64,000 bases of DNA, from contig NZ_DATIND010000084.1 of the NCBI RefSeq assembly GCF_035474595.1, positions 1-64,000 of the forward strand, read 5' to 3'. The stretch comes from Longimicrobium sp. Lineage in GTDB: Bacteria > Gemmatimonadota > Gemmatimonadetes > Longimicrobiales > Longimicrobiaceae. Below the pieces are notes generated by a model, which worked only from the letters and a program-made list of their open reading frames with translations, had not been told where the DNA came from and did not search any database. The position numbers and the translations under genes were made by a program. Shown here piece by piece: positions 48 through 64,000 of this stretch. Positions within the stretch are counted from its first letter, which is position 1. Each line of letters begins with the position of its first letter.

Positions 48-111
48 AGCCTCGCGCAGTTTGCGAGGCTTCCCGTAGTTGTTGCTGCGACTTCAGTCGC
101 CGGTGACCGGC
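48..111 (+). repeat. Double-hairpin intergenic element, X-type copy 1
   Basis: First stem AGCCTCGC/GCGAGGCT (48-55 and 63-70), a GTAGTTGTTGC linker, then a second stem GCGAC/GTCGC closed by a TTCA loop (87-100), followed by GCCGG/CCGGC. The same layout recurs at 9405-9470, 10836-10898 and 28794-28846. It lies directly before a second repeat (173-340). Confidence 0.85.
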
Positions 112-172
112 TGCGCCCGCGCACTTTCTATTCAGGCCGGCTCCACCGGAATCTACCTGTGCACAGGAACGT

Positions 173-340
173 GCAGGCCGAAGGATCCATAGCCCGTCCA
201 GCACGTCAGCCGAAAGATACGCCGCGGAGCCGTTCAGGGTCGATCCCAGCGCACGTGCGACCTCGCCTGTAGATCCTTCGGCCTGCCGTCTTCGGTGTGT
301 GGATCGGCTCCTCCGTGGCCGGCCTCAGGATGACGTCCCT
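173..340. repeat. Nested palindromic repeat, Z-type copy 1
   Basis: Inner arms GCAGGCCGAAGGATC (173-187) and its reverse complement (272-286) enclose about 85 nt. A right outer arm GGCCGGCCTCAGGATGACG follows around 318-336; the left outer arm is degraded. The first 422 bases of the window hold only this, the preceding double hairpin and a terminator. Confidence 0.8.
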
Positions 341-360
341 CGTTCGGGTCGAATGCAAAC

Positions 361-396
361 GAAGCAGGGCGCCGCACCATCGCGGCGCCCTGCTTC
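361..396 (-). terminator. Intrinsic terminator after the barrel-like gene
   Basis: GAAGCAGGGCGCCGC pairs with GCGGCGCCCTGCTTC around a 6-nt loop, with a short T run on each side. It lies about 25 nt beyond the stop codon of the minus-strand gene ending at 423. Confidence 0.75.
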
Positions 397-422
397 TTTC
401 CATCTACCTCGATCCCGGCGCG

Positions 423-1196
423 TCAGCGGATGCGGTACGAGACGCCGAAGCGCAGGGTGAAGATGTTGGAGGTATTGTAGTCGTAGTCGATGACCACCGG
501 CTCGCCCGTCAGCGCCTCGCCGATGGTCACGTCGCGGGCGGTCATCGAATCGGTGTTCCAGAAGGTCAGGAAGTCCTGCAGCCCGATGGTGAACGCCCAG
601 CGCGACGTGCGCCCGATGCGCGCCGACGCGTCGGCGCCCAGGTTCAGCGCGAAGTTGGTGGTCGACTTGTTGGCGGCGTCGGGAAAGCCGCTCACGTCGT
701 CGTAGTCCACCCACACCAGCGCCGGCGCCACCGTGATGAACGCCGACGGGTGGAAGTGGCGGTTGTCCGGCTCCGGGTCGGCCAGGCGGAACACCACGCC
801 CGCCTTGGCCATCCAGTACCGCGGCCCGTCGGTGGTCACGTCCACCGAGCTGTCGGCCTGCAGGTCCTGGAAGCGCAGCACGTCCTCGCGCTTTCCCGAG
901 TAGGCCACGCCGCCCACCACGTTGATGGGCCCGCGCACCCGCGCCATCACGTCCACCCCCAGCATGGGCCCGCCGCCGCGCTGCGTGGCGATGCGGAACT
1001 GGTCGCCGCCCTGGGTGAACAGCACCACGTCGCCGGTGGTGTACGGCACGCGCGCGCCGATGTACGGCATGACGGAGATGCGCGACTCGGGAAGCCGCTC
1101 GGGCGGCGGCTCGTTGGCCAGGAGCGGCCGGTCCTGGGCGGACGCGGCCAGCGGAAGCGCGAGCAGCCCCAGCAGGGCGAGCGCGCTGCGATTCAT
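423..1196 (-). CDS. Exported outer-membrane beta-barrel-like protein
   Basis: A 257-residue protein beginning with a classical signal peptide (residues 1-20, cut after ASA). The mature part alternates polar and hydrophobic residues, with many Asp/Gly turns, and ends in Tyr-Arg-Ile-Arg, as expected of a small outer-membrane barrel. No catalytic motif is visible and I do not recognise a named family. The ATG at 1196 was chosen because an AGGAGG ribosome site lies just upstream and the signal peptide starts there; the frame stays open further upstream without a plausible start. It is single, followed by a strong terminator, and divergent from the ApbE gene. Likely role: a porin-like or structural outer-membrane protein (inference). 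Confidence 0.75.
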   Translation of the reverse strand: MNRSALALLGLLALPLAASAQDRPLLANEPPPERLPESRISVMPYIGARVPYTTGDVVLFTQGGDQFRIATQRGGGPMLGVDVMARVRGPINVVGGVAYSGKREDVLRFQDLQADSSVDVTTDGPRYWMAKAGVVFRLADPEPDNRHFHPSAFITVAPALVWVDYDDVSGFPDAANKSTTNFALNLGADASARIGRTSRWAFTIGLQDFLTFWNTDSMTARDVTIGEALTGEPVVIDYDYNTSNIFTLRFGVSYRIR

Positions 1197-1476
1197 GGAC
1201 TCCTCCTGATGTTCAGGGGGGGTGTGCGTTGGGTCCGGGGAGGTGCTGTCCGGGGGATTGGCTGCGAAGATAATCCCCCGCCGTCCGTTACGGAATATCT
1301 TCGCGCCGTGGACGCGCACTTTCCCGCTGCTGCAACTCCCGGCGGTAACAGTGCGGACGGGCGATTCGATCGACTCGGATTCGTCTCCATCGCCCCCACG
1401 CGGCCCCAAGGTTGCGCTGCGCCCGGCATCCGTCCCACGCCGCCGACCCTGCATCTTCGCACCGCCGGACGCTCAC

Positions 1477-2721
1477 ATGCTTTCCCAGCTTCCCAATCGT
1501 TCGGCGGATGGAGATGCCGACCGCCCCGCGCGCCGCGCCGCCTCCGCGCCTCGACCCGCGCGGATGCTCATCTTCTTCTCCTGCATGGCGATGCTGGCGG
1601 TCGCCGGATGCCGGCAGCCGCGGATGGCGCCGGTCCCCGCGGCGATCGAGTATCCGCGCTACGTCTCCAGCGACACCATTCCGCCGCCGATAGTGCGGGC
1701 CTGGCCCGCGATGGGGGCGATGCTGGAGATCAGCGTGTGGGACGCCGACAGCGCCCGCGCCCGCGCGGCGATGGAAGCCGCGCGCGCCGCCGTCCTCCGC
1801 GTGGACTCGCTGATGTCCCCCGAGAGCGCCCCGGGCGAGGTGGCCGCCGCCAACCGCCGCGCGGGGACGGACAGCGCCACCACGCTGTCGCCGTGGACGG
1901 CGGAGGTGCTGGACTCGGCGCTCGCGATCGCCGCGGCGTCGGGCGGCGCGGTGGACGTGACGGCGGCGCCGCTGGCCGGCGCGTGGCGTGCGGGCGCCGT
2001 CCCCCCGCAGCAAGTGCGCGACTCGCTGGCCGCGCGGGTGGGATGGCGGATGGTGCGCTTCGACCGCGTCGCGCGCCGCGTCTCCCTTCCGCAGCGCGGA
2101 ATGCGGCTGGACTTCGGGGAGATGGCGCGCGGCTTCGCGGTGGACCGCGGCGTCGCGGCGCTGCGCGCGGCGGGGATCGGGAGCGCGGTGCTGGACGTGG
2201 GCGGCACCTTCCGCGTCCTCGGCCCGACGCCGGTGACGCCCGGATGGACGATGGGCCTCACCGACCCGCGCGGCCCCGGCGAGGTCTTCGCCGCGGTGCA
2301 CATCGACAGCGGCGCGGTCGCGACGATGGGCGATTACGGGCAGATGTTCGAGGCCGGCGGCGAGCGCTGGTCGCGCGTGCTGGACCCGCGCCGGGGAGTG
2401 CCCGCGCGCGGCGTGGTCTCCGTCTCCGTCCTGGCACCCAGCGGGATGCTGGCGGACGCGCTGCTGGGCGCCTTCTTCGTGATGGGCCCCGAGGAGGGGT
2501 GCCGCTGGGCCGCGCGCTACCCCGGCGTGGACGTGGTCTGGGTGCGCGACGCCGGCCACGACGAGGAGAAGGAAGACGACGACGAGGCCATGGACCCCGA
2601 CCTGGTCGTCATCACCGACGCGCTGAAGGACCGCCTGGAGATCCTCACCGAGGAGCCCACCGACGAGCGCCCCACCACCTGCAGCCAGCTCCTCGCTCAC
2701 GCGAAGAGCTCCGTGCCGTGA
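1477..2721 (+). CDS. apbE: ApbE-family FAD:protein FMN transferase, lipoprotein
   Basis: ApbE enzymes transfer FMN from FAD to a Thr of partner flavoproteins outside the inner membrane, using Mg2+. The family signature is visible in order: WPAMGAMLEISVW near the start, DFGEMARGFAVDRGV, VLDVGGTFRVLG, ATMGDYGQMF, and LDPRRGVPARGV followed by MLADALLGAFFVMG, which holds the conserved Asp of the metal site. A hydrophobic stretch ending LAVAGC is a lipobox, so the protein should be a lipid-anchored periplasmic enzyme. The start is uncertain: ATG 1477 gives a long arginine-rich n-region, while ATG 1564 (MLIFFSCMAM) gives a bare lipoprotein signal of 385 residues. An acidic DDDEE-type insertion lies near the C-terminus. 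No flavin-binding partner gene is adjacent. Confidence 0.88.
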   Translation: MLSQLPNRSADGDADRPARRAASAPRPARMLIFFSCMAMLAVAGCRQPRMAPVPAAIEYPRYVSSDTIPPPIVRAWPAMGAMLEISVWDADSARARAAMEAARAAVLRVDSLMSPESAPGEVAAANRRAGTDSATTLSPWTAEVLDSALAIAAASGGAVDVTAAPLAGAWRAGAVPPQQVRDSLAARVGWRMVRFDRVARRVSLPQRGMRLDFGEMARGFAVDRGVAALRAAGIGSAVLDVGGTFRVLGPTPVTPGWTMGLTDPRGPGEVFAAVHIDSGAVATMGDYGQMFEAGGERWSRVLDPRRGVPARGVVSVSVLAPSGMLADALLGAFFVMGPEEGCRWAARYPGVDVVWVRDAGHDEEKEDDDEAMDPDLVVITDALKDRLEILTEEPTDERPTTCSQLLAHAKSSVP

Positions 2722-2835
2722 CGAATCCCCCGCGTCTCCGCGTCTCCGCGTGAGATCGACGATGCAGCGGTGCGCGAGATGGGATTCCGTCGACAACACG
2801 TGGCAATCATCCGTGCATCAAAAACGCACAGAGAA

Positions 2836-3072
2836 ACGTCATCCTGAGGCCGGACACACCGTCGTTGCCCCCGGACGAGCGGTTGCAGGCCGAAGGATCC
2901 ATAGGCGAGGTCGCACGTGCGCTTGATCGGTCCCCGAATTCGGATTATACCAGATCCGGCGGAAGAATCAGTGCATCTCGCCGAATCACGTGCTGCGGCG
3001 ACGATAGATCCTTCGGCCTGCAACCTCTCGTGTAGACGCTGGTTACGGTGTGGCCGGCCTCAGGATGACGTC
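2836..3072. repeat. Nested palindromic repeat, Z-type copy 2
   Basis: Outer arm ACGTCATCCTGAGGCCGG at the left mirrors CCGGCCTCAGGATGACGT at the right. Inner arm TTGCAGGCCGAAGGATC mirrors GATCCTTCGGCCTGCAA. The core (about 2910-3000) is related to the core of the copy at 58534-58814, inverted. Together with flanks it fills the gene-free stretch 2722-3257. A further shared flank GGATGCACGAACT (from 3088) recurs in variant form near 11009 and, inverted, near 58500. Confidence 0.85.
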
Positions 3073-3257
3073 GGTGTAATACGTCGAGGATGCACGAACT
3101 AAATTCCCGGATTCGGTACCAGAGGGATGACACCGGTTGCGCGGACGCCCCGTATCATCTCCTTGGGCGCCGCGAGCGTCAGGACCGGGCTGGACAGACG
3201 CCCGGCGCCGCGCTACGCTCCCCTGATCCACCGCCAGATTCCCCGGCCCACGCGCGA

Positions 3258-4931
3258 ATGTCCACCTCCGCATCAGCCCGCAAGCCGTTCGGCCGCATGG
3301 TTCCCTCCGACGAGCAGGGGCGCCCCGCCGACGCATCGCCCGCGCAACGGCTGGCGCTGCGGGTGATGCAGGCCGCCTGCGTCCTCGTCGTTCTGGCGGC
3401 GGCCACGTACAAGAGCTTCGAGCTGGACCGCTTCTTCATCCCCAAGGAGCTCACGCTGAACCTGGCGGCGCTGCTGGTGGCGGTGCTCTGCCTGGGCGCC
3501 GCGCGGCGCGCGCAGCCGGGCCGCGTGGACCTGCTGCTGATCGGCTTCCTGGTGCTGAGCGCCGCCTCGGCCGCGCTGGCGCAGAACCCGTGGAACGGCG
3601 TGCGCGCGCTGGCCGTGAGCGCCAGCGGGGTGGCCATGTTCTGGGCCGCGCGCTCGGTGGCCCGCGCCGGGCTGTCTCGCCCGCTGCTGGTGGCCATCGC
3701 CGCGGCCGTCGTCCTCGGGGCGGGGATGTCGCTGGCGCAGACGTACGGCGTGCGGACCGACTTCTTCTCCATCAACCGCGCGCCCGGCGGCACACTGGGG
3801 AACCGCAACTTCGTGGCGCACCTCTGCGCCTTCGGGCTCCCCGTCCTCTTCCTCTGCGCGCTGCGCGCCTACCGCCTGCTGGGCACCATCCTGGGCGCGC
3901 TGGGCGTGGCGATGGTGAGCGGCGCGCTGGTGCTCACCCGCTCGCGCGCGGCGTGGCTGGGCGTGGCCGCGGTGCTCGCCGTGTTCCTGGTCGGCTGGCT
4001 GCTGGTGCCGCACGCGCGCCGCAGCCTGCGCCACTGGTCGCGGCTGATGCTGCTCCTGCTCTGCGCGGCGGGCGGCGCGGTGGCCGTCGTCACCCTTCCC
4101 AATACGCTGCACTGGGCCAGCGACAACCCGTACGCCGAGACCGCGCACGGGCTGGTGAACGCCAGGGAGGGAAGCGGGCGCGGGCGGCTGCTGCAATGGA
4201 AGAACACGCTGCGGATGGCGGCGGCGCACCCGCTCCTGGGCGTCGGCCCCGGCAACTGGCCCGTGCACTACCCCGAGTACGCGCCCCGCAGCGACCCGTC
4301 GATGAACGACAACGAGCCGGGGATGACGAGCAACCCCTGGCCCAGCAGCGACTGGGTGGCCTTCATCGCCGAGCGCGGGCCCCTGGCCGCGGGGATGCTG
4401 GTGCTGGCGTTCGTCGCGCTGGCCATCGCCGCGCTGCACCGCATGCGCGCCGCGCGCGACGCCGACGAAGGCTTGGCCGCGCTTGCGCTGGCGGCGATGG
4501 TGGCCGGCGCCGTGGTGGTCGGCGCCTTCGACGCGGTGCTGCTCCTGGCGCTCCCCTCGCTGCTCGTGTGGACGGCGCTGGGCGCGCTCTCGGCCACCGA
4601 GCCGGGGCGGTGGGACGTGCGCGTGCCGGTGCCGGTCCGGGGGTTGGGGATGCTGCTCGCCGTCGCCGTCTTCGGCATCTTCACCGTGAAGAGCGCCGCG
4701 CAGCTGATGGCGATGGGCGTGTATGACGGCGCCAGCACGGTCGGCGGGCTGCGGCAGGCCGCGTCGCTCGATCCGGGGAGCTACCGCATCCAGCTGAAGC
4801 TGGCCCGCAGCGGCGCCGGCTGCGACGTCCGCCGCGCCGCCGCCGAGGCCGCGCACTCGCTCTTCCCCCAGGCCAGCGCCCCCAAGGGCCTCCGCTCCAG
4901 CTGCGGCGGGAGACGACGGAGAAGGCGGTGA
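3258..4931 (+). CDS. O-antigen ligase/polymerase-like multi-spanning membrane protein
   Basis: A 557-residue protein with about a dozen hydrophobic segments in the first 480 residues. Between them sits a soluble loop carrying SGRGRLLQWKNTLRMAAAHP followed by LLGVGPGNW and HYPEY. This combination is the hallmark of the O-antigen ligase/Wzy_C superfamily, whose members join polysaccharide chains to lipid A-core or polymerise repeat units at the periplasmic face. The C-terminus is Arg-rich and soluble, with a possible short repeat-containing region. The start at 3258 (MSTSASARKPFGR) was preferred to an upstream ATG at 3090, which lies by the repeat element and would add 56 low-complexity residues. 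No other polysaccharide genes are adjacent, so substrate is unknown. Confidence 0.8.
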   Translation: MSTSASARKPFGRMVPSDEQGRPADASPAQRLALRVMQAACVLVVLAAATYKSFELDRFFIPKELTLNLAALLVAVLCLGAARRAQPGRVDLLLIGFLVLSAASAALAQNPWNGVRALAVSASGVAMFWAARSVARAGLSRPLLVAIAAAVVLGAGMSLAQTYGVRTDFFSINRAPGGTLGNRNFVAHLCAFGLPVLFLCALRAYRLLGTILGALGVAMVSGALVLTRSRAAWLGVAAVLAVFLVGWLLVPHARRSLRHWSRLMLLLLCAAGGAVAVVTLPNTLHWASDNPYAETAHGLVNAREGSGRGRLLQWKNTLRMAAAHPLLGVGPGNWPVHYPEYAPRSDPSMNDNEPGMTSNPWPSSDWVAFIAERGPLAAGMLVLAFVALAIAALHRMRAARDADEGLAALALAAMVAGAVVVGAFDAVLLLALPSLLVWTALGALSATEPGRWDVRVPVPVRGLGMLLAVAVFGIFTVKSAAQLMAMGVYDGASTVGGLRQAASLDPGSYRIQLKLARSGAGCDVRRAAAEAAHSLFPQASAPKGLRSSCGGRRRRRR

Positions 4932-5021
4932 CGGGTTGAAGCTAACAGTGGAATGTGCGAGCGGGGAACGACATCAAGTCGCTCCCCGCTCTACGTCAGA
5001 AGCTCGCTTGCCTAGAGTCTG

Positions 5022-5603
5022 TTAGGCGAACCGGGCAGTTGCGCCGTACTCAAGTGCGAGCGACTCCAGCGGGTTGAGCATTTTGCGAACGGGCGAAACG
5101 CTTAGCATTTTGGCCGCTAGGTGCCCCCCTGCGACACTCGCAACGAGCACTGTTGTCGCGGGGATGAGCAGTATGAGCAGAAATGGCGAGGTAAGTACAA
5201 CCTGTTCTGTCACGTAGGCGCCCATGCGAGCGACAATCGAGTCGATCGTCTTCCGTTGGTCTGGGGACAAATCAGCCATCGCCTCCCGTAGCTGCAAATT
5301 GAACGCTAAGCGCTCATGCTCCGCTTTGCGATAAGCGATCCCGGCGACGATAGCAGATCCAAGTGTTACACGCTCACCAAATCGGATGAAACCGTTCAAG
5401 GTTGAGCGAGTAATCCCATACGCTTCGGCATCGAACTCGATTCCCCCAATTGCCGCAAAATCGAAAAGCTCGTCTCGCAGGGCAAACATCCTCTGCCGGA
5501 ACAAATCGATCCGGTAGTCGCGGTAGAGCACAAAAACGAGTACGGACACGAAAAATAGCGACAGCGCAGTAGTTGCTGCGGTCGCTGCGACCGTGCTACT
5601 CAT
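5022..5603 (-). CDS. Membrane protein of unknown function, distal gene of an AT-richer pair
   Basis: A 193-residue protein with an N-terminal transmembrane segment (about 10-27) and a second hydrophobic stretch at about 140-165. Between them is a helical, charged cytoplasmic region. The start overlaps the stop of the upstream gene (ATGA) and a GGAGG site precedes it, so translation is coupled. Base composition and codon use are visibly more AT-rich than in all neighbours, suggesting acquisition by transfer. I do not recognise the family. Membrane-anchored two-gene cassettes of this size are often accessory functions, but nothing in the sequence identifies a catalytic residue set. Confidence 0.75.
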   Translation of the reverse strand: MSSTVAATAATTALSLFFVSVLVFVLYRDYRIDLFRQRMFALRDELFDFAAIGGIEFDAEAYGITRSTLNGFIRFGERVTLGSAIVAGIAYRKAEHERLAFNLQLREAMADLSPDQRKTIDSIVARMGAYVTEQVVLTSPFLLILLIPATTVLVASVAGGHLAAKMLSVSPVRKMLNPLESLALEYGATARFA

Positions 5604-6004: not shown

Positions 6005-6051
6005 GTGGGGAGGAGGCTCGTTATTCTGACAGGTGCCACCAGATGGCCGAA

Positions 6052-6232: not shown

Positions 6233-6245
6233 TCACACCGCCCGC

Positions 6246-9404: not shown

Positions 9405-9470
9405 CAGCCGGTCACCGGCGACTGAAGTCGCAGCAACAACTACGGGAAGCCTCGCAAACCGCGCGAGGCT
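9405..9470 (-). repeat. Double-hairpin intergenic element, X-type copy 2
   Basis: Reverse-orientation copy with first stem AGCCTCGC/GCGAGGCT and second stem GCGAC/GTCGC. It separates paralogues 2 and 3. The rest of the gap (9471-9650) contains no recognisable gene. Confidence 0.85.
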
Positions 9471-10835: not shown

Positions 10836-10898
10836 AGCCGGTCACCGGCGACTGAAGCCGCAGCAACAACGACGGGAAGCCTCGCAAACTGCGCGAGG
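10836..10898 (-). repeat. Double-hairpin intergenic element, X-type copy 3 (wobble intermediate)
   Basis: On the minus strand the second stem reads GCGGC/GTCGC, with one G-T pair: an intermediate between GCGAC/GTCGC (48-111) and GCGGC/GCCGC (28794-28846). The first stem has one mismatch. Confidence 0.85.
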
Positions 10899-11039
10899 GT
10901 GTTCAGCTCGGAAGCCAGTTGCCGGCCGCGGAGGCCGCCTCTCTTTCATCCTCCCTGGACGTGCGCAGCGCGGGAACGGCTCAGGAAGATGCCGGTTGGG
11001 ATCCGGCGAGGATGCACCAACCGAATTCCCGATTCTGGT

Positions 11040-13971: not shown

Positions 13972-14063
13972 GCGGAAGTGCGGAAGTGCGGAAGTGCGGA
14001 AGTGCGTGAGTGCTGAGTGCTGAGTGCTGAGTGCTGAGTGCTGAGTGCTGAGTGCTGAGTGCT
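13972..14063 (+). repeat. Short tandem arrays GCGGAAGT and GAGTGCT (left arm)
   Basis: About five 8-nt units (13972-14006) followed by eight 7-nt GAGTGCT units (14008-14063). A reverse-complement array of AGCACTC units lies at 14251-14365, so the two can pair into a long stem that loops out a double-hairpin element. Confidence 0.9.
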
Positions 14064-14159
14064 GACCTTACGCGGAGGCGCGGAGGATTCGTGACGGCAC
14101 GGAGTTCTCCGCGCCTCCGCGCCTTGATGCGTGATCTCCGCCGGGATAGTGCGGTCGCG

Positions 14160-14207
14160 AGTCCGCGAAGGCGGACTTCGGGCCGTTGTTGCCGCGAATT
14201 CATTCGC
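14160..14207 (+). repeat. Double-hairpin intergenic element, Y-type copy 1
   Basis: First stem AGTCCGC-GAAG-GCGGACT (14160-14177), linker GGGCCGTTGTTGCC, second stem GCGAA-TTCA-TTCGC (14194-14207). It sits between the two complementary short-tandem arrays in the gene-free stretch 13875-14366. Confidence 0.88.
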
Positions 14208-14250
14208 CGGGGGGGCCACAGCTGCCAGCCCGTCGCTCGGTTTCCCCCTT

Positions 14251-14365
14251 CAGCACTCAGCACTCAGCACTCAGCACTCAGCACTCAGCACTCAGCACTC
14301 AGCACTCAGCACTCAGCACGCACTCAGCACTCAGCACTCAGCACTCAGCACTCAGCACTCAGCAC
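14251..14365 (-). repeat. CAGCACT tandem array (right arm)
   Basis: About sixteen 7-nt units with one interruption (CAGCACGCACT). It ends at the stop codon of the minus-strand HAD gene, so in the direction of transcription the mRNA runs from the stop codon straight into AGTGCTG repeats. Confidence 0.9.
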
Positions 14366-23002: not shown

Positions 23003-23752
23003 ATGGAAGGATTCCAGAACCTGCACCCGTGGGAGCTGAAGGTCGCGGAAGCGCGCGAGGTGCAGCTCGCGCTGCGCGATCGCCTCGTGATGCGGCCGCC
23101 GCCCGGGTTCGCGCCGCGGCTGGTGGCGGGCGCGGACGTGTCGGCGGACCGGTTCAGCCGCGTGGGCTTCGCCGGTGTGGTGAACATCGACCTGGAGACG
23201 ATGGCCACGGTGGAGGAGGCCAGCGCGAAGGTGGATCTCCGCTTCCCCTACGTCCCCGGCTACCTCTCCTTCCGCGAGATCCCGGCGCTCGCCGCCGCGT
23301 GGGAGCGGCTGGAGCATCGGCCCGACGTGGTGGTGTTCGACGCGCACGGCTACGCGCATCCGCGGCGCTTCGGCGTGGCCTGCCACGGCGGCGTGCTGCT
23401 GGACCTGCCGTCGGTAGGCTGCGCCAAGACGATGTTCGTGGGCGAGCACGGCCCGCTGGGCGAGGAGCGCGGCTCCACGGCGGAGATCATCGACAAGGGC
23501 GAGGTGATCGGCGTCGCGCTGCGCACGCGGGACCGCTGCAACCCCGTCTACGTCTCCGTGGGCCACCGGATGGACCTGGAGACCGCCATCGCCCTGATCC
23601 TCCGCCTCACCCGCTTCCGCCAGCCGGAAACCACGCGCCGCGCGCACCAGCTGGTGAACGACGCCCGCCGCGCGCACAAGGCCGCCGTGGCGGAGGCCGA
23701 GGCGCCGGCCACACCCGGGAAGCCGGCCACACCCCGGGAGCCGGGCGAATAA
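23003..23752 (+). CDS. nfi: Endonuclease V (deoxyinosine 3' endonuclease)
   Basis: A 249-residue protein with the three acidic catalytic positions of endonuclease V in their motifs: D45 in VAGADVS, E92 in YLSFREIPAL, and D113 in VVFDAHGYAHPRRFG. PYVPGYLSFREIP is the strongest family signature. The enzyme cuts one phosphodiester beyond deoxyinosine and some mismatches in DNA, beginning repair of deaminated adenine. The start at 23003 (MEGFQNLHPWELKV) was preferred to an ATG at 22910, which lies inside a repeat element. The C-terminus has a Pro/Ala tail of about 20 residues, and the stop codon lies within a double-hairpin repeat (23745-23790). Confidence 0.9.
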   Translation: MEGFQNLHPWELKVAEAREVQLALRDRLVMRPPPGFAPRLVAGADVSADRFSRVGFAGVVNIDLETMATVEEASAKVDLRFPYVPGYLSFREIPALAAAWERLEHRPDVVVFDAHGYAHPRRFGVACHGGVLLDLPSVGCAKTMFVGEHGPLGEERGSTAEIIDKGEVIGVALRTRDRCNPVYVSVGHRMDLETAIALILRLTRFRQPETTRRAHQLVNDARRAHKAAVAEAEAPATPGKPATPREPGE

Positions 23753-23790
23753 ATTCGCGGCAACAACAGCACAAAGTCCCTTCGGGGACT
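23745..23790 (-). repeat. Double-hairpin intergenic element, Y-type copy 2
   Basis: Reverse orientation: second stem GCGAAT-AA-ATTCGC (23745-23758), first stem AGTCCC-TTCG-GGGACT (23775-23790). The TAA stop of the endonuclease V gene (23750-23752) lies inside the second stem. The rest of the gap to 24031 shows no gene. Confidence 0.88.
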
Positions 23791-28097: not shown

Positions 28098-28145
28098 AGT
28101 CCGCGCAGGCGGGCTGCGTGCAGTTGTAGCCGCCACTTCAGTGGC
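28098..28145 (+). repeat. Double-hairpin intergenic element, Y-type copy 3
   Basis: First stem AGTCCGC-GCAG-GCGGGCT (one G-T pair), second stem GCCAC-TTCA-GTGGC: both halves changed relative to GCGAA/TTCGC elsewhere. Preceded by CGGAGACG-type short repeats (28045-28080). Confidence 0.88.
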
Positions 28146-28793: not shown

Positions 28794-28846
28794 AGCCTCG
28801 CGCAGTTTGCGAGGCTTCCCGTAGTTGTTGCTGCGGCTTCAGCCGC
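28794..28846 (+). repeat. Double-hairpin intergenic element, X-type copy 4
   Basis: First stem AGCCTCGC/GCGAGGCT (28794-28801 and 28809-28816); second stem GCGGC-TTCA-GCCGC (28833-28846), a full compensatory pair relative to GCGAC/GTCGC. Confidence 0.88.
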
Positions 28847-28963
28847 CGGTGAGGGGGGACAAGGCCGCGAACTTTCCCCTCTCCCGCCGCGCTGAATGGA
28901 GAAACGGCGAGCCGGGCGACGGAATCTTCCGCCGCCCGGCTCGTCTCCATCCCCCCATCTCCC

Positions 28964-37657: not shown

Positions 37658-37702
37658 GCGAATGAATTCGCGGCAACAACAGCACAAAGTCCCTTCGGGA
37701 CT
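37658..37702 (-). repeat. Double-hairpin intergenic element, Y-type copy 4
   Basis: Second stem GCGAAT-GA-ATTCGC (37658-37671), first stem AGTCCC-TTC-GGGACT (37688-37702), with the CAACAACAG linker between. Confidence 0.88.
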
Positions 37703-54398: not shown

Positions 54399-54568
54399 CG
54401 GGAGATGCCGTTCAGGGGAGTGGGAGATGGGAAGATCGGGAGAAGACTACGCCCGCCGCCGGCCCCCTGCAATCCGCGCTCGATTCCGGGGTTCGGCCTT
54501 GCATCCCCCCCAACCTCGCCACGATCCTTCCGCCCACGCGTCGGTGCCGCCGAATGCGCCGGAATGAT

Positions 54569-54629
54569 GTCCGCGAAGGCGCCGCGAAGGCGGACTGCGT
54601 GCCGTTGTAGCCGCGAGTTTTTCAGTCGC
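54569..54629 (+). repeat. Double-hairpin intergenic element, Y-type copy 5
   Basis: GTCCGC...GCGGAC first stem with an internal duplicated GCGAAGGC; linker GTGCCGTTGTAGCC; second stem region GCGAGTTTTTCAGTCGC is imperfect. A degraded copy. Confidence 0.75.
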
Positions 54630-57782: not shown

Positions 57783-57787
57783 AGGAG

Positions 57788-57816: not shown

Positions 57817-57859
57817 GAGCCATATTAGCGGTTAGTCACCCGATGCAGGATCGCGACCA

Positions 57860-58486: not shown

Positions 58487-58533
58487 TCGCCAATTTCGAG
58501 AAATCAGTTCGTGCATCCGCGCTGCATCGACTT

Positions 58534-58814: not shown

Positions 58815-58874
58815 GGGGGGATGGATGCGTCGATCGCAGTCCCAACGCACTCACGCACTTCCGCGCCATAAAAG

Positions 58875-58904
58875 AGAAGGGGACCGGCTTGTGGCCGGTC
58901 CCTT
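58875..58904 (-). terminator. Terminator of the 58940 gene
   Basis: GAAGGGGACCGGC and GCCGGTCCCTTC pair with one bulge around TTGTG. It lies 36 nt past the minus-strand stop. Confidence 0.7.
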
Positions 58905-58939
58905 CGCGTGTCCGTCCGTTGCGCCACGCGGGCGGGGCG

Positions 58940-59260
58940 TCAGTGCACCGGGTACGGTTCCAGGCGGCCGCCGCGGGACAGCAGGAGCGAGCTCTCGGCG
59001 CCGTCCAGGCGCGAGAAGATGCGGCCGGCGCGCAGCTGCTGCAGGAGCGCGGCCGAGTCGCCGTCGCGCAGGGCGTCGTGGCTCACGTGCAGATAGCGCG
59101 CGCTGCCGCCCTCGCGGAAACGCCACACGTGCCGGTTCCCCTCGTCGCGCGAGGCCATGCGCACCGTCTCCCACCGCTTGCGGGCCTGCCGCCGCAGCAC
59201 CGCGCCGATCTCCCGGGCCACCCGGGCCAGCTTCTGGTGCTCGATCTCGTGATTTTCCAT
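58940..59260 (-). CDS. Small helical protein of unknown function
   Basis: A 106-residue basic protein: ARVAREIGAVLRRQARKRWE, then HVWRFREGGSARYLHVSHDAL. No membrane segment, no known motif. AAGGAA ribosome site. Followed by a terminator, so it is a single gene. Confidence 0.65.
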   Translation of the reverse strand: MENHEIEHQKLARVAREIGAVLRRQARKRWETVRMASRDEGNRHVWRFREGGSARYLHVSHDALRDGDSAALLQQLRAGRIFSRLDGAESSLLLSRGGRLEPYPVH

Positions 59261-59269
59261 GGGATTCCT

Positions 59270-59473
59270 TCATCTGCGGGGGAGCGCGTTCGCGGCCCAC
59301 GGAGCCCCGTCACGCCGCGGGTGCGGGGATGGGAAGTGCCTCCGGGAGCGGTGCGCCACGATTGTATACCCCGCAGTTCGGATTTCGTCCAACCGGATGA
59401 GGATGCGCTTGTAGGGGAATTTGCCGACAAGATGCTTGACATCGACTTGCGTGCCGTTTATAAAGATGTCCAT
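59270..59473 (-). CDS. Possible small beta-grasp-like protein
   Basis: A 67-residue frame. MDIFINGTQVDVKHLVGKFP YKRILIRLDEI then GYTIVAHRSRR have protein-like composition, less GC-biased than the surroundings. The strand-turn-strand start and GYTIVAHR-type ending faintly recall ubiquitin-like/multiubiquitin domains. The ribosome site is weak. The C-terminal 25 residues are Arg/Pro-rich and unconvincing. It may be a remnant or not a gene. Confidence 0.35.
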   Translation of the reverse strand: MDIFINGTQVDVKHLVGKFPYKRILIRLDEIRTAGYTIVAHRSRRHFPSPHPRRDGAPWAANALPRR

Positions 59474-59823
59474 TCCAGACGGTCACTTCCCCGTCGGTTG
59501 CGACCGGAGCCCGCGCGGCTCCTCCCATCAGGATCCTCCGCAAGCCAGTCCGTTTTCGCTTCGCAGAAGATCGGTTCCGCCCGCTCCATACCGTGTTTCC
59601 CTCTCACATCGCCGTTGGCCGTCCCGCGTTCCGGGCCCTCGTGGCCCGTGCCGCCGCGTCCGCGCGTGTGGTTACGGAGCGCTGACGCAGCCGCAGGAGT
59701 TCCCCCAGTGTGCGCCCCGCGGGGGCGCCCAGACGCGCCCGGGCGGCGCGACCCGCGAAACGCCGACCGTGCGGAAGGTCCGCACCGGCGCCCCATCCAA
59801 AAACGCAGCAGCAGGAGTAGGAG
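59474..59823 (+). other. Long 5' leader region of the cold-shock gene
   Basis: No coding sequence seen. It contains GC hairpins (GCGCCCCGCGGGGGCGC near 59717) and ends with AGGAGTAGGAG before the cold-shock ATG. Cold-shock mRNAs often have long structured leaders, so the region may be a thermosensor, which is inference. Confidence 0.4.
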
Positions 59824-60042
59824 ATGGCCCGCTCGACCGGCAAAGTGAAGTGGTTCAACGACGCCAAGGGGTTCGGCTTCATTGAACACGAGGGTGGCAG
59901 GGACCTGTTTGTCCACTTCTCCGCCATCAAGCAGGAAGGCTTCAAGACCCTCACCGAGGGCGAGGCCGTGGAGTTCGACATCGTGGAGGGCCCCAAGGGC
60001 CCGGCCGCGGAGAACGTGACGCGTCTCGGCGCGAACTCCTGA
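59824..60042 (+). CDS. Cold-shock protein
   Basis: A 72-residue CSD protein: [18 protein letters not shown] includes RNP1 (KGFGFI), and [10 protein letters not shown] is RNP2. It binds single-stranded RNA/DNA and melts RNA structure. AGGAG ribosome site. Followed by a terminator (60068-60095) whose whole 3' tail, from the stop codon on, is repeated at 60545-60599. Confidence 0.95.
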
Positions 60043-60079
60043 GCGAGCGGGACATCCTCTGAACGCGCGAAAGGCCGCC
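60040..60079 (+). repeat. Cold-shock 3' tail, copy 1
   Basis: From the TGA stop codon to the terminator left arm: TGAGCGAGCGGGACATCCTC then TGAACGCGCGAAAGGCCGCC. Repeated at 60545-60584. Confidence 0.85.
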
Positions 60080-60095
60080 TCCGGGCGGCCTTTCG
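60068..60095 (+). terminator. Terminator of the cold-shock gene
   Basis: CGAAAGGCCGCC and GGCGGCCTTTCG around TCCG, then TTTGTTTA. Confidence 0.88.
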
Positions 60096-60132
60096 TTTGT
60101 TTATTCAGTTCGATCGAAATCTCGGGGCGAAA

Positions 60133-60315
60133 TCAACCGGCGTTCTTCGCCGATTTCGCCGGGGACGTCTGACCGGTGCCGCCAGCGGGAGCCTTGGGAA
60201 GCGTCGTGCGATGGCCATGCGGCACGTGCGTCCGCCGGTCCTTCGGCGCATACCCCTCGTTCAGCGGACGGTATCCGCCCTTTTCGGTCCGCCCGAGATC
60301 ATCCGTCTTGGCCAA
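60133..60315 (-). CDS. Small basic protein, second gene of an overlapping pair
   Basis: A 60-residue protein read from TTG 60315, with AGGAGGTGG right before it. MAKTDDLGRTEKGGYRPLNE GYAPKDRRTHVPHGHRTT is rich in Gly, Lys, Arg and His, ending in Ala/Lys. It overlaps the end of the upstream frame by 17 nt. Unknown. Confidence 0.55.
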   Translation of the reverse strand: MAKTDDLGRTEKGGYRPLNEGYAPKDRRTHVPHGHRTTLPKAPAGGTGQTSPAKSAKNAG

Positions 60316-60441
60316 GCTCCACCTCCTCTTCAGGAATCGCGAACAATTCCAGATACGTGTACTGGTCCTTGGTGAGCAACACCCCGCGTGAGTCTTCGAT
60401 CGGCTCGCCAAAACCGTAGCAGCGTTAAAGGAAGCGTCCAT
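60299..60441 (-). CDS. Small protein, first gene of the pair, split by a frameshift
   Basis: ATG 60441 with GGAGGTG upstream gives MDASFNAATV. A -1 shift at GTTTTGG then gives FGEPIEDSRGVLLTKDQYTY LELFAIPEEEVELGQDG, a far more protein-like sequence than the zero frame, ending at 60299. Either a one-base loss or a programmed -1 shift. No family known. Confidence 0.5.
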
Positions 60442-60544
60442 CGCGCACCTCCGATATGGGATCAAGGTTGGATGGGCCCGAATGTACACTTTACCCCTTT
60501 TGACGCAACTCTCCGTGATTGTAGAATTGCAGTAGTACGGACCC

Positions 60545-60599
60545 TGAGCGAGCGGGACATCCTCTGAACGCGCGAAAGGCCGCCCTTGGCGGCCTTTCG
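60545..60599 (+). repeat. Cold-shock 3' tail, copy 2, with terminator
   Basis: The same TGAGCGAGCGGGACATCCTC tail, with the terminator CGAAAGGCCGCC-TTG-GGCGGCCTTTCG-TTTTCC (60573-60599). No cold-shock coding part precedes it, so it is a remnant of a duplication. It now also lies at the 3' end of the DUF3592 gene. Confidence 0.85.
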
Positions 60600-60625
60600 T
60601 TTTCCAGCAGGCTCGGGTGCGCGGT

Positions 60626-61054
60626 TCACCCCGACATGGCCGCGAGCCCGAACACCAGCACCATCAGCGCCCCGGCTCCGGCGAAGACAAGGCCGACGAC
60701 CGCGAACCCCACCGGGATCATCCACAGGACGACGGGCGCCTCGATCTCGGCCGACTGGGGGCGCTCCGCCGGGAAGTGGACGGTGATCGGCTGGCCCACC
60801 TGGTGCTGCGGCGGCTGCGATCCGATCCGCGACGCCACGGTCATCAGCTTGCCGGAGGGGGCGCGGAACTGCACGACGGGGAAGTAGATCCAGCCGGCGC
60901 GCCCGGTCATCCGCCGCACGTCCACCACCACGCCGGGCGCGGCCACCGACGCGGCCGCCTCGCGACGGCCGCGGATGAGCACCTCGGCCGCGGCGCCCAT
61001 CGCCAGCAGCCCCATCACGATGAACCCGACGCCCACGGCGATCGGTATCCCCAT
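60626..61054 (-). CDS. DUF3592 membrane protein
   Basis: A 142-residue protein with two transmembrane segments (about 5-28 and 108-138) and a beta domain between: APGVVVDVRRMTGRAGWIYF PVVQFRAPSG and GQPITVHFPAERPQSAEI. That is the DUF3592 pattern. Function unknown. Single gene. Confidence 0.85.
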   Translation of the reverse strand: MGIPIAVGVGFIVMGLLAMGAAAEVLIRGRREAAASVAAPGVVVDVRRMTGRAGWIYFPVVQFRAPSGKLMTVASRIGSQPPQHQVGQPITVHFPAERPQSAEIEAPVVLWMIPVGFAVVGLVFAGAGALMVLVFGLAAMSG

Positions 61055-61254
61055 CCCGCATCTCCCGTCGTGAGTCTCCGCACCTGATCTCCCGCCCCAA
61101 GCTAACGGCGCGGGGGACCGGCGAGAACGGCCGCGGGCCGGTGGAGGCGAATCGGGGCGATGATTTGCAGGAGATGCGCGGCTTGCGTGGAGCGGCGCCG
61201 GGCCGGACGTTGGTCGTTCCGGTTGGCTGGGCGAGCGGAGGGAGATGGAGATCG

Positions 61255-62739
61255 ATGGCCGAGGCGGGAACGCGGGTGCGGGTGGCGATCGTCGGCAGCG
61301 GGTTCGGCGGGCTGGGGGCGGCGATCCGGCTGAAGCAGGAGGGGATCACCGACTTCGTGCTGCTGGAGCCCGCGCGCGACGTGGGCGGCACCTGGCGCGA
61401 CAACACCTATCCCGGGTGCGAGTGCGACGTGCAGTCGCACCTGTACTCGTTCTCGTTCGAGCCCAACCCGGAGTGGACGCGCTCGTTCTCGCCGCAGCCG
61501 GAGATCCAGGCGTACCTCCAGCGCGTGGCGAAGGAGTTCGGCATCCTCCCGCACGTGCGCTTCGGCCACGAGGTGCGCGGCGCCGCGTGGGACGACGCCG
61601 CGCAGCTGTGGCGCATCGACACCACGCAGGGACCGTACAGCACGCGGGTGCTGGTGATGGCGCCGGGCGCGCTGAGCGACCCGCTCGTCCCGGACATCCC
61701 CGGGCTGGACCGCTTCGAGGGGCGCGCCTTCCACTCCGCGCGGTGGGACCACTCGTTCGACCTCGGCGGGAAGCGCGTGGCGGTGATCGGCACCGGCGCG
61801 TCGGCCATCCAGCTCGTTCCCGCCATCCAGCCGCGCGTCGAGAAGCTCTTCGTCTTCCAGCGCACGCCGCCGTGGATCCTGCCGCGTACGCAGCGCCGGG
61901 TGGGCGAGCGCACGCACCGCGTCTACCGGCGCTTTCCCGCGCTGCAGCGGGGGATGCGGGGGATGATCTACCTGGCGCGCGAGGCGTTCGTGCTGGGCTT
62001 CCGGCGCCCGCGGGCGATGCGGCTGGCGGAGAAGATCGCGCGGCGCCACCTGGCGAAGAGCATCGCGGACCCGGCGCTGCGCGCGAAGCTCACGCCGGCC
62101 TGGACCATCGGCTGCAAGCGCATCCTCCTCTCCAACGACTACTATCCCGCGCTCGCCCGGCCGAACGTGGAGGTGGTGACGGATCGCATCAGCGCGATCC
62201 ATCCCCATTCCATCGTCACCGCCAACGGGGCGGAGTGCGAGGTGGACGCGATCGTCTTCGGCACCGGCTTCCTGCCGACCGACCCGCCGCTCGCGCACGC
62301 CATCCGCGGGCGGGACGGCCGCGCGCTGACGGAGGTGTGGGCGGGGAGCCCGAAGGCGCACGTGGGGACGACGGTGGTTGGCTTTCCCAACCTGTTTCTG
62401 CTGATGGGCCCCAACACGGGGCTGGGGCACACCTCGGTCGTGTACATGATCGAGGCGCAGGTGGAGCACATGATCGCGGCGATGCGGCACCTGGAGCGCA
62501 CCGGCGCGGCTGCGCTGGAGCCGCGGCCCGAGGCGCAGGCGGCGTTCGTGGACGCGGTGGACCGGCGGATGGCCGGCACCGTATGGACGGCGGGGGGATG
62601 CCGGAGCTGGTACCTGGACGGGACCGGGCGCAACTCCGCGCTCTGGCCGGACTTCACCTGGCGCTTCCGCAGGCGCGTGGCCACGCTGGACCCCGCGGAG
62701 TACGTGGCGATCCCGCCCCGCGCCGCGGCGGCCGAATGA
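61255..62739 (+). CDS. FAD-dependent Baeyer-Villiger-type monooxygenase
   Basis: A 494-residue protein. FAD-binding GSGFGG (14-19), the fingerprint FEGRAFHSARWD (154-165), which fits the FxGxxxHxxxW(P/D) type I BVMO pattern, and NADP-binding GTGASA (179-184). DVGGTWRDNTYPGCECDVQS is also typical. Type I BVMOs insert oxygen next to ketones, giving esters or lactones, using NADPH and O2. The start at 61255 has GGAGGGAG upstream. Its stop overlaps the esterase start (ATGA), pointing to sequential ketone-to-ester-to-acid steps. Confidence 0.9.
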   Translation: MAEAGTRVRVAIVGSGFGGLGAAIRLKQEGITDFVLLEPARDVGGTWRDNTYPGCECDVQSHLYSFSFEPNPEWTRSFSPQPEIQAYLQRVAKEFGILPHVRFGHEVRGAAWDDAAQLWRIDTTQGPYSTRVLVMAPGALSDPLVPDIPGLDRFEGRAFHSARWDHSFDLGGKRVAVIGTGASAIQLVPAIQPRVEKLFVFQRTPPWILPRTQRRVGERTHRVYRRFPALQRGMRGMIYLAREAFVLGFRRPRAMRLAEKIARRHLAKSIADPALRAKLTPAWTIGCKRILLSNDYYPALARPNVEVVTDRISAIHPHSIVTANGAECEVDAIVFGTGFLPTDPPLAHAIRGRDGRALTEVWAGSPKAHVGTTVVGFPNLFLLMGPNTGLGHTSVVYMIEAQVEHMIAAMRHLERTGAAALEPRPEAQAAFVDAVDRRMAGTVWTAGGCRSWYLDGTGRNSALWPDFTWRFRRRVATLDPAEYVAIPPRAAAAE

Positions 62740-63821
62740 CGGACCGGCTCCGCCTTGCCGACCGCGTGGAGCGGTGGATCTCGCGCGCGCTGGTGCGCCT
62801 TCCCGCGCCGCTTCACGTGCGCCTCTCCGGCGAGCCCGCGCACACCGCGGACGGGCAGACGCTGGACCCGCACGTGCAGCTGGTCCGCGCGCTCCGGCGC
62901 CGCCGCAACCCGCAGCGGTACGGCCTGACCGAGCCGGCGGTGGAGATCGCGCGCCGCCGCTTCCGCCGCGAATCCGTGCTCTTCCGGGGCCCGGTGACGC
63001 CCGTCGGCTCCGCGCGCGACTTCGACATCCCCGGCGGCGCCGGTCCCATCCGCGTGCGTCACTACGCTCCCGCGGAGACGACATCGCCGCCGCCGCTCAC
63101 CGTCTACCTGCACGGGGGCGGCTTCACCATCGGCGACCTGGACACGCACGACGAGGCGTGCCGCATCCTCTGCCGGCATGGGGGGATGCAGATCCTGAGC
63201 GTCGAGTACCGGCTTGCCCCCGAGCACCCGTTTCCGGCGGCGCTCGACGACACGCTGGCGGCGCTGCGGTGGGCGCGGGCGCATGCGGCGGAGCTCGGCG
63301 CGGACCCGGCGCGCGTGGCCGTGGGCGGCGACAGCGCGGGCGGCAACCTCTCCGCCGTCGCGTCGCAGCTCACGCGCGGCGAGGCGGGGCGGCCGGTGGC
63401 GCAGCTCCTCATCTACCCCGCAGTGGATTCGGAGACGAAGCGGCCGTCGCAGGCGATGTTCAGCGAGGGCTACTTCCTGAGCCAGGCGGACCGCGACGCG
63501 TTCGCGCGCTTCTACCTGGACGGGACGGGGGCGAGGGGAGACGACCCGCGCGTGTCGCCGCTGCTGGCGCCCGACCTCGCCGGCCTGCCGCCCGCGCTGG
63601 TGGTGACGGCGGGGTTCGACCTCCTCCGCGACGAAGGCGAGGCGTATGCCGCCGCGCTGCAGGCCGCGGGTACCCCGGCGCGGGTGATCCGCTTCCCCGC
63701 GCACGTGCACGGTTTCCTGCACATGACCGGCATCTCCCCCGCCGCCCGCGCCGCGATGGTCCGGATTGCGGAGGCGTGGCGCGAGTTGCTGGACGGGCTG
63801 GGGGGCGATTCCTCGCCGTAG
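62736..63821 (+). CDS. Alpha/beta hydrolase of the hormone-sensitive lipase family
   Basis: A 361-residue protein. Oxyanion motif HGGGF (126-130), nucleophile GDSAGG with S200 (198-203), acid D295 in AGFDLLRDE, and H325 in HVHGF. It hydrolyses short-chain esters. It is translated from an ATG within the BVMO stop, so the two probably break down the same ketone substrate. N-terminal 60 residues form a helical cap. Confidence 0.92.
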   Translation: MTDRLRLADRVERWISRALVRLPAPLHVRLSGEPAHTADGQTLDPHVQLVRALRRRRNPQRYGLTEPAVEIARRRFRRESVLFRGPVTPVGSARDFDIPGGAGPIRVRHYAPAETTSPPPLTVYLHGGGFTIGDLDTHDEACRILCRHGGMQILSVEYRLAPEHPFPAALDDTLAALRWARAHAAELGADPARVAVGGDSAGGNLSAVASQLTRGEAGRPVAQLLIYPAVDSETKRPSQAMFSEGYFLSQADRDAFARFYLDGTGARGDDPRVSPLLAPDLAGLPPALVVTAGFDLLRDEGEAYAAALQAAGTPARVIRFPAHVHGFLHMTGISPAARAAMVRIAEAWRELLDGLGGDSSP

Positions 63822-63825
63822 AGGG

Positions 63826-63874
63826 GCGAATGGAATTCGCGGCAACAACGGCCCAAAGTCCGCCTTCGCGGACT
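63826..63874 (-). repeat. Double-hairpin intergenic element, Y-type copy 6
   Basis: Second stem GCGAAT-GGA-ATTCGC, then first stem AGTCCGC-CTTC-GCGGACT (63857-63874). It starts 4 nt after the esterase stop. Confidence 0.88.
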
Positions 63875-63974
63875 CCCTCCCCGGCATCGTCGCGGCGCAC
63901 CGGCCTCGCTCATGGCTTGGCCCGAGCCTTGGGCGCGGGGATGGAAATCCAGACGCGCGAATGCATCCGCCGCG

Positions 63975-64000
63975 AGTCCGCGAAGGCGGACTTTGGGCCG
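63975..64000 (+). repeat. Double-hairpin intergenic element, Y-type copy 7, cut by window end
   Basis: AGTCCGC-GAAG-GCGGACT (63975-63992) followed by TTGGGCCG, the beginning of the linker. Opposite orientation to copy 6, about 100 nt away. Confidence 0.85.

What the first reader, a model, noticed from the sequence alone, without database searches (positions are those of the whole stretch)
48..64000. Eleven copies of a double-hairpin intergenic element with compensatory base changes
The copies (48, 9405, 10836, 14160, 23745, 28098, 28794, 37658, 54569, 63826, 63975) share the layout stem 1 - GTTGTTGC-like linker - stem 2. Stem 2 reads GCGAA/TTCGC, GCGAC/GTCGC, GCGGC/GCCGC or GCCAC/GTGGC, and once GCGGC/GTCGC with a G-T wobble. 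Both sides change together, which implies selection on pairing in RNA or single-stranded DNA. All are intergenic; one includes a stop codon. Two subtypes differ in stem 1 (AGCCTCGC or AGTCCGC). I know of no named family with this plan.
Basis: partly seen in the sequence, partly recalled or inferred. Interest (0 to 1): 0.85.

Follow-up and report, generated by a model that had tools for sequence, protein, structure and literature searches.

The report
Two-hairpin repeats paired with transposases
The eleven repeats are real members of a population of hundreds of small two-hairpin DNA elements in this bacterium, very probably spread by several small single-strand-DNA transposases, each of which sits between inverted copies of its own version of the element.

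Summary
Both stems covary: stem 2 is fully paired in 157 of 167 copies chosen without using stem 2, against 3 of 167 control stretches. The likely identity is not a new RNA family but REP/REPIN-like, non-autonomous DNA elements. All 5 intact Y1 (HUH) transposase genes found in this genome lie between inverted copies. The plan recurs with other stems and linkers in relatives, Chloroflexota and Armatimonadota. The model finds elements in 14 of 15 tnpA-positive and 2 of 46 tnpA-negative relatives. The transposases are IS200-like, not RAYTs, and carry the Y...Q..HH motif of TnpA 'subclass 1.2', which a 2018 survey lists as having no REPs. What looks new is this REPtron type: a short REP plus a second hairpin about 10 nt upstream of a variable tetranucleotide ending in G. 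Mobility in trans is inferred; only one clean presence/absence site between sister species was found.

The parts
48..100 (+). two-hairpin element, subfamily A (GTTG)
   Evidence: (E 1.2e-6, model match 58-100)
9418..9470 (-). two-hairpin element, subfamily A (GTTG); site without element in sister genome G008
   Evidence: (E 2.5e-8)
10848..10900 (-). two-hairpin element, subfamily A (GTTG), stem 2 GCGGCT/AGTCGC with a G-T wobble
   Evidence: (E 3.3e-6, model match 10848-10890)
14160..14207 (+). two-hairpin element, subfamily B (GTTG)
   Evidence: E 5.9e-16
23745..23790 (-). two-hairpin element, subfamily C (GTTG); overlaps the end of a predicted gene by 8 nt
   Evidence: (E 4.6e-11)
28098..28145 (+). 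two-hairpin element, subfamily D (GTAG)
   Evidence: E 5.5e-11
28794..28846 (+). two-hairpin element, subfamily A (GTTG), stem 2 GCGGCT/AGCCGC
   Evidence: (E 9.5e-7, model match 28804-28846)
37658..37702 (-). two-hairpin element, subfamily C (GTTG)
   Evidence: E 1.4e-11
54568..54629 (+). two-hairpin element, subfamily D (GTAG), stem 1 with internal duplication, stem 2 degenerate
   Evidence: (E 4.3e-7)
63826..63874 (-). two-hairpin element, subfamily B (GTTG); left half of an outward inverted pair with the next copy, 100 bp between
   Evidence: (E 7.5e-14)
63975..64000 (+). two-hairpin element, B-like with GTAG, cut by the window edge; complete on the contig
   Evidence: (E 2.2e-6, cut at 3' end)

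Best explanation
The copies are REP/REPIN-like, non-autonomous mobile DNA elements whose cognate mobilisers are small Y1 (HUH, single-tyrosine) transposases encoded elsewhere in the genome. Shown: hairpin 1, about 10 nt, a tetranucleotide ending in G (GTTG or GTAG here; CCAG, CGAG and others in relatives), 2 nt, then hairpin 2 (mostly a 6-bp stem, loop beginning with T), with nearly constant spacing; close neighbours are mostly outward inverted pairs, the same arrangement as around the tnpA genes. Inferred: while the DNA is single-stranded, for example on the lagging-strand template, the cognate TnpA dimer binds the folded hairpin or hairpins together with the 5' tetranucleotide acting as a guide, cleaves beside the element, and moves or copies single elements and inverted pairs in trans. 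Pairing is kept because the transposase must recognise the fold. Each subfamily co-diverges with its own transposase, so the genome carries several parallel transposase-element sets.
For: All 5 intact tnpA genes of the genome (6 Pfam matches, one broken) lie between inverted two-hairpin elements: A, C, B, D and a C variant for L082 (by eye). In relatives, 21 of 30 tnpA loci have flanking inverted repeats scoring 26 or more against 16 of 1000 random positions; close to the gene 20 of 30 against 2 of 1000; these are two-hairpin elements specific to each tnpA. Element and TnpA distances correlate over 23 sets (Mantel r 0.456, 0 of 5000). Co-occurrence: model R1 14 of 15 tnpA+ and 2 of 46 tnpA- relatives; core pattern 14 of 15 and 0 of 46. 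Covariation. 167 of 171 sampled copies intergenic. 30 of 40 neighbour pairs under 400 bp are outward inverted. HUH and Tyr/Gln residues invariant in 25 sequences; profile matches to solved IS200/IS605 TnpA. Site without the element in sister G008.
Against: No movement is shown; one clean presence/absence site only, without placeable junctions, and the reverse site (511 bp in G008, 1344 bp here) is not a clean comparison. 9 of 30 tnpA loci fall below the score, some on short contigs. G010, G063 and G065 carry tens of elements without a detected tnpA, and G062 carries 57 with only a tnpA of the group that lacks such flanks. 16 of the 30 outward pairs join different subfamilies, which a strict one-transposase-one-pair model does not predict. 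In convergent gaps hairpin 2 points to the nearer gene in 39 of 53, a bias I cannot fully explain. A copies share similarity over 110-200 bp, so the moving unit may be longer than the element. No guide-to-target rule was found.
Confidence: 0.85

Rival explanations
1. A structured RNA element (3' UTR stabiliser, terminator or regulatory RNA) under selection for RNA folding, with the transposase link incidental.
For: Covariation with some G-T pairs; enrichment between convergent genes, 53 of 164 copies with known gene order against 45 of 261 kb of intergenic DNA; a bias of direction in convergent gaps, 39 of 53. REPs can also act in RNA once inserted (PMC3733652, abstract).
Against: No strand preference in codirectional gaps (48 against 45); elements nearly always co-occur with, and flank, matching tnpA genes; nothing in Rfam at gathering score in the window.
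Confidence: 0.08
2. Dead ends of ordinary IS200-family insertion sequences: remnants of complete tnpA-carrying copies, with no trans mobilisation of the short elements.
For: The same elements form the ends of tnpA loci. NCBIfam calls the proteins IS200/IS605 transposase.
Against: Hundreds of copies against 5 intact and 1 broken tnpA; tight spacer lengths, 59-119 bp in 26 of 30 outward pairs; the tnpA copies differ too much for a recent IS burst (46-52% identity to the first).
Confidence: 0.06
3. A chance collection of GC-rich hairpins.
For: Short GC-rich hairpins are common here: 3 of 167 control stretches reach 6 of 6 pairs and 22 reach 5.
Against: 470 exact core matches against 0 for the reversed pattern; independent model hits down to E 5.9e-16.
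Confidence: 0.005

Closest known systems
GTAG-tagged REP sequences and REPtrons (PMC3733652: abstract, part of Results, two sections and passages read; PMC6006769: abstract, named sections and passages read)
   Same: High-copy intergenic palindromes; tetranucleotide 5' of a hairpin (GTAG in subfamily D); TY loops; inverted dimers; subfamilies each with their own flanked Y1 transposase gene.
   Different: A second hairpin at fixed spacing belongs to the element; the tetranucleotide is mostly GTTG here and varies between transposases; the transposase is IS200-like (class 1), not class 2 TnpAREP.
Double palindromic TIRs / TIRtrons (PMC3733652, section 16 read; figures not held)
   Same: Degenerate REP units joined to an unrelated stem-loop, flanking Y1 transposase genes, hundreds of copies in P. 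putida and P. fluorescens.
   Different: Those transposases fall in subclasses 2.1, 2.2 and 2.5 (PMC6006769, section 15); here it is a class 1 protein, and stem 1 covaries and keeps its distance across many transposases.
REPINs (PMC3116915: search listings with the start of the abstract only)
   Same: Inverted pairs of REP-like elements with a short spacer dispersed in a genome.
   Different: Each half is itself a two-hairpin element, and 16 of the 30 outward pairs mix subfamilies.
IS200/IS605 TnpA (IS608, ISDra2) and TnpAY1 subclass 1.2
   Same: HUH and Y---Q residues, profile match to solved TnpA structures, NCBIfam IS200 model; Y---Q--HH, WQ, DHVH signature of subclass 1.2.
   Different: Ends are inverted two-hairpin repeats with large populations of short copies; the 2018 survey lists no REPs for subclass 1.2 and mostly Cyanobacteria and Bacteroidetes.

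Membership tests
GTAG REP sequence | GTAG (or GT[AG]G) tetranucleotide at the 5' foot of the hairpin | tested here: not met
   GTAG in subfamily D, GTTG in A-C; CCAG, CGAG and others beside tnpA in relatives
GTAG REP sequence | one palindrome of 20-40 bp | tested here: not met
   two hairpins over about 45-53 nt
GTAG REP sequence | high copy number, intergenic | tested here: met
   470 exact core matches; 167 of 171 sampled copies intergenic
GTAG REP sequence | flanks a Y1 transposase gene in inverted orientation | tested here: met
   5 of 5 intact tnpA in this genome; 21 of 30 loci
REPIN | inverted pairs with short spacer | tested here: met
   30 of 40 neighbour pairs under 400 bp; many copies are single
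REPIN | mobilised as a unit in trans | not testable with these tools
   no assay; one clean presence/absence site, of a single element
RAYT / REP-associated tyrosine transposase (NF047646) | score above curated cut-off of 80 bits | tested here: not met
   19.6-30.3 bits in 4 of 5 proteins, no listed match in the fifth
IS200/IS605 transposase (NF033573) | score above curated cut-off of 55 bits | tested here: met
   59.3-81.8 bits in 5 of 5
TnpAY1 subclass 1.2 | DH[IV]H, WQ and Y---Q--HH motifs | tested here: met
   all five proteins; D, H, H, W, Q, Y, Q, H, H invariant in 25 sequences
TnpAY1 subclass 1.2 | specific C-terminal domain | tested here: inconclusive
   by eye the 137-148 aa proteins of this genome lack the long tail seen in L171, L189 and L190; no domain model was available
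TnpAY1 subclass 1.2 | not associated with REP sequences (2018 survey) | tested here: not met
   flanking multi-copy elements; also around the Persicobacter gene, which has the tail
IS200/IS605 element | tnpB partner; top-strand-only asymmetric ends | not tested
   tnpB was not sought; ends here are inverted repeats
Rfam family | match at gathering score | tested here: not met
   0 matches in the window; no hit over copies 28098 and 28794 at E up to 1

The most novel reading that the evidence does not exclude
IS200-like (class 1) TnpA proteins with the Y...Q..HH signature have founded their own REP world with a built-in two-hairpin site. The two hairpins at fixed spacing around one linker may dock both subunits of a TnpA dimer; because a hairpin then lies 3' of the linker on either strand, the same inverted terminus could serve as a right end on one strand and a left end on the other. 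The freely varying tetranucleotide would be a swappable guide that sets the target. This would make the 2018 'no REP' subclass a second origin of REPtrons, exchanged between Gemmatimonadota, Armatimonadota, Chloroflexota and perhaps Bacteroidota.
Probability: 0.35. Interest if true: 0.78.

Novelty: new variant of a known kind. Interest (0 to 1): 0.63.

Why it matters
It offers a large, covarying set of natural element-transposase pairs, several per genome and in at least three phyla, for the open question of how Y1 transposases recognise folded single-stranded DNA and choose where to cut. It goes against the 2018 view that TnpA proteins with the 1.2 signature have no REP elements, and it explains repeats that would otherwise look like a new structured RNA in these genomes.

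Tried and rejected
Structured RNA as the main reading: disfavoured by the lack of strand preference in codirectional gaps and by the transposase association; the direction bias in convergent gaps (39 of 53) stays open. Known RNA family: nothing at gathering score; the weak CsrC match at 28908-28944 lies outside the copies. RAYT identity: rejected by the curated cut-off. Guide-target rule: by eye I saw no simple complement of the tetranucleotide in the bases 3' of stem 2 in the four subfamilies; no computation was made. Junctions from G008: the intergenic sequence was too diverged to place them; 20 more G008 stretches added no further site for copies of this genome and one reverse site that is not clean. 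The swapped-flank null (600 swaps, 95% at 15.5, 99% at 38, max 133) is contaminated by loci that share elements, so random positions of the own genome were used for the relatives. Widening to Bacteroidota as a phylum was not possible. No structure was predicted and tnpB was not sought.

Prior description: among the papers listed by searches of the open-licence library (several list only part of their hits) I saw none, by title and start of abstract, on two-hairpin REPs with subclass 1.2 transposases. Subscription papers, preprints and ISfinder were not searched. That the ISDra2 entries are ISDra2 is recalled; the table itself names only ISHp608.
Full report
OBSERVATION. A covariance model, R1, was built from 13 elements that lie beside transposase genes in other genomes, with no window sequence in it. 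Over the 64-kb window its best eleven hits are exactly those eleven (E 5.9e-16 to 3.3e-6); the twelfth is E 0.006 and is left out. The last copy is cut by the window edge and completes on the contig. In the genome (6.57 Mb, 163 contigs) the pattern GTTGTTGCNGCGANTTNANTCGC matches 270 times and the wider TTGTWGCNGCGNNTTYANNCGC 470 times; reversed controls match 0 times. Window and sampled contigs come to 1,189,129 bases, 18% of the genome, chosen partly because they held copies or tnpA. In them I catalogued 171 copies: A 56, C 52, B 32, D 31. The catalogue missed two of the eleven window copies, 54568 and the truncated 63975. Conservation stops sharply near the element edges, though A copies share weaker similarity over 110-200 bp.

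ANATOMY. Hairpin 1 is mostly a 6-8 bp stem such as AGTCCGC/GCGGACT or AGCCTCGC/GCGAGGCT. Then come about 10 nt, a tetranucleotide ending in G, 2 nt, and hairpin 2, mostly a 6-bp stem with a 2-3 nt loop. The distance from stem 1 to stem 2 is 16 nt in 104, and 14-17 nt in 149, of the 158 copies that could be measured (13 of 171 could not). For 26 elements beside transposases (3 of them in this genome) 23 could be parsed: 16 nt in 14, range 14-20; it is 14 where stem 2 takes in the two spacer bases. The loop of hairpin 2 begins with T in all 23. The tetranucleotide is GTTG or GTAG here and CCAG, CGAG and others elsewhere.

COVARIATION. Copies were first found by pairing, which biases a count. So copies were selected again by stem 1 and linker only: 167 places. 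Stem 2 forms 6 of 6 pairs in 157 (best of a few registers), against 3 of 167 for the same test 40 nt downstream; in one fixed register 120 against 1. Relative to each family's commonest stem, 110 cells changed on both sides and still pair, 4 changed on one side and still pair, and 10 do not pair; copies with fewer than 4 pairs (2 of 167) are not in this cell count. Variants within one genome can descend from a few masters, so elements flanking different transposases were aligned too. With 24 rows, misaligned ones kept, 92.1% of cells pair and the covariation score of 0.347 is reached by 0 of 500 shuffles. With 15 ungapped rows, picked for equal length, 99.0% pair and 0.391 is reached by 0 of 500. 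Sliding the partners by 1-3 columns drops pairing to 29-43%. The shuffles do not model phylogeny.

THE TRANSPOSASE LINK. The genome has 6 Pfam PF01797 matches, one a broken gene. The five intact ORFs each sit between inverted two-hairpin elements. L080 has A, L081 C, L083 B, L084 D, with hairpin 2 outward; L082 has a C variant on the left and two variants on the right, read by eye. The profile of these proteins hit 15 of 61 genomes. Of the 30 loci returned (of 35 matches; 3 loci are this genome's own), 21 have a flanking inverted repeat scoring 26 or more, against 16 of 1000 random positions of this genome; close to the gene 20 of 30 against 2 of 1000. The repeats found are two-hairpin elements particular to each transposase. 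TnpA and element distances correlate over 23 sets (Mantel r 0.456, 0 of 5000).

DISTRIBUTION. R1 finds elements in 14 of 15 tnpA-positive genomes (not G025, whose tnpA match is distant) and 2 of 46 tnpA-negative ones: G010 with 29 hits in a 72% complete draft, and G018 with one hit at E 5.9e-4. The core pattern gives 14 of 15 and 0 of 46. Named genomes carrying the core are an uncultured Gemmatimonadetes (AVDCRST_MAG68, whose tnpA places equal those of G004, a same-genus genome), Armatimonadetes, Chloroflexi (Thermoflexales, Anaerolineae and one other), 'Candidatus Aquidulcis' and an unnamed bacterium. Of 27 further genomes, R1 hit 7 of 7 chosen because they held the core: G063 and G065 have no detected tnpA, G062 only one of the group without such flanks, G067 one in two pieces. 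It hit 5 of 6 chosen for a tnpA of the flanked clade, flank status already known; the miss, G196, is the one whose tnpA had no flanking element. It hit 2 of 14 chosen for lacking a tnpA match, with 8 hits and 1 hit. In Chloroflexota the profile hit 46 of 201 genomes, ordinary IS200 included. Of 29 loci fetched, 25 could be parsed. Two-hairpin repeats were seen in L192, L193, L194, L196 and L197, a weak inverted repeat in L209, and none in the 7 IS200-type loci L212-L218.

WHAT THE TRANSPOSASE IS. All five score above the NCBIfam cut-off for IS200/IS605 transposase and far below that for REP-associated tyrosine transposase. A profile of 25 relatives matches solved TnpA structures, among them ISHp608. 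D54, H55, H57, W95, Q96, Y115, Q119, H122 and H123 are among 11 invariant positions. This is the DH[VI]H / WQ / Y---Q--HH signature that Quentin et al. 2018 give for TnpAY1 subclass 1.2, described as mostly from Cyanobacteria and Bacteroidetes, with a specific C-terminal domain and no REPs (PMC6006769: abstract, sections 5 and 12, part 1 of section 15, and passages). The proteins of this genome lack a long C-terminal tail by eye, so I call them 1.2-like. In a 62-row tree, from which duplicates and loci without a parsed ORF were left out, a group of 37 holds 34 labelled as flanked by two-hairpin elements (support 88/86, drawn open; L178 and L178b rest on weaker repeats). A group of 12 has none, and the 7 IS200-type rows none; the label needs 6 changes against 20.2 shuffled. 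Two Bacteroidota plasmid genes are also bracketed by inverted hairpins. In Persicobacter the 50 kb around the gene hold four further left-plus-right end pairs 143-145 bp apart (590 bp with tnpA); in Bernardetia no further copies were seen in 50 kb.

GENOMIC BEHAVIOUR. By a crude codon-based gene caller 167 of 171 copies are intergenic, 3 partly overlap a gene and 1 is inside. 93 lie between codirectional, 53 between convergent and 18 between divergent genes (6 undetermined), against 161, 45 and 55 kb of such intergenic DNA. In codirectional gaps 48 lie on the strand of the genes and 45 opposite, and 63 of 93 are nearer the upstream gene's stop. In convergent gaps hairpin 2 points to the nearer gene in 39 of 53. 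Of 40 neighbour pairs closer than 400 bp, 30 are outward inverted pairs, 26 with 59-119 bp between them and 16 joining different subfamilies; some are tandem duplicates of one pair. In the window, 63826 and 63975 form such a pair. Against sister genome G008 the gap holding the 9405 copy is 441 bp between aligned blocks here and 152 bp there without an element; by my reading of stop and start codons about 316 and 34 bp. In reverse, a pair in a 511-bp gap of G008 meets 1344 bp without elements here, not a clean comparison.

MECHANISM. Shown: paired hairpins, near-fixed geometry, subfamily-transposase matching, co-occurrence, intergenic spread, inverted pairs, one clean site with and without the element. 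Inferred: that TnpA acts in trans on single-stranded elements, that the tetranucleotide works as a guide, and that both hairpins contact the protein. The inference rests on TnpAREP and IS200/IS605 biochemistry as given in PMC8266576 (abstract and part 1 of the Discussion): strand-specific recognition, loop T contacts in IS608 and ISDra2, GTAG placed like a guide sequence.

COMPARISON. The nearest known things are GTAG REPs with REPtrons, the double palindromic TIRs of some Pseudomonas tyrosine transposases (PMC3733652: abstract, part 1 of section 4, sections 14 and 16, passages; figures not held), and REPINs (listing only). The new points are the second hairpin as a regular part, the variable tetranucleotide, and the class of transposase: hence 'new variant of a known kind'.

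Noticed in passing
window 13976-14065 and 14249-14345: Inverted repeats of about 90 bp (90-98% identity, several registers) on both sides of the B element at 14160, with many further copies in this genome and its genus; a separate repeat family.
   Followed up: partly
L084:1162-1968 (G000:C46, minus strand): The D-type tnpA ORF runs on into an addiction-module component domain (PF09720 / TIGR02574): a transposase-antitoxin-like fusion.
   Followed up: no
window 54568-54629; L084 right copy; G000:C25 46324 and C44 1423: Stem 1 carries an internal duplication, so that it can fold in more than one way.
   Followed up: no
G000:C44 72711-73302: Three tandem copies of a C-C outward pair with a period of about 254 bp, suggesting local amplification of the pair as a unit.
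   Followed up: no
window 28908-28944 (-): Weak match to CsrC (22.3 bits, cut-off 61; E 1.8e-4 in a 951-base search), probably chance.
   Followed up: no
L266 (Persicobacter sp. JZB09 plasmid 3, 260000-309900): A tnpA with multi-hairpin inverted ends and four tnpA-less left-plus-right end pairs within 50 kb.
   Followed up: partly
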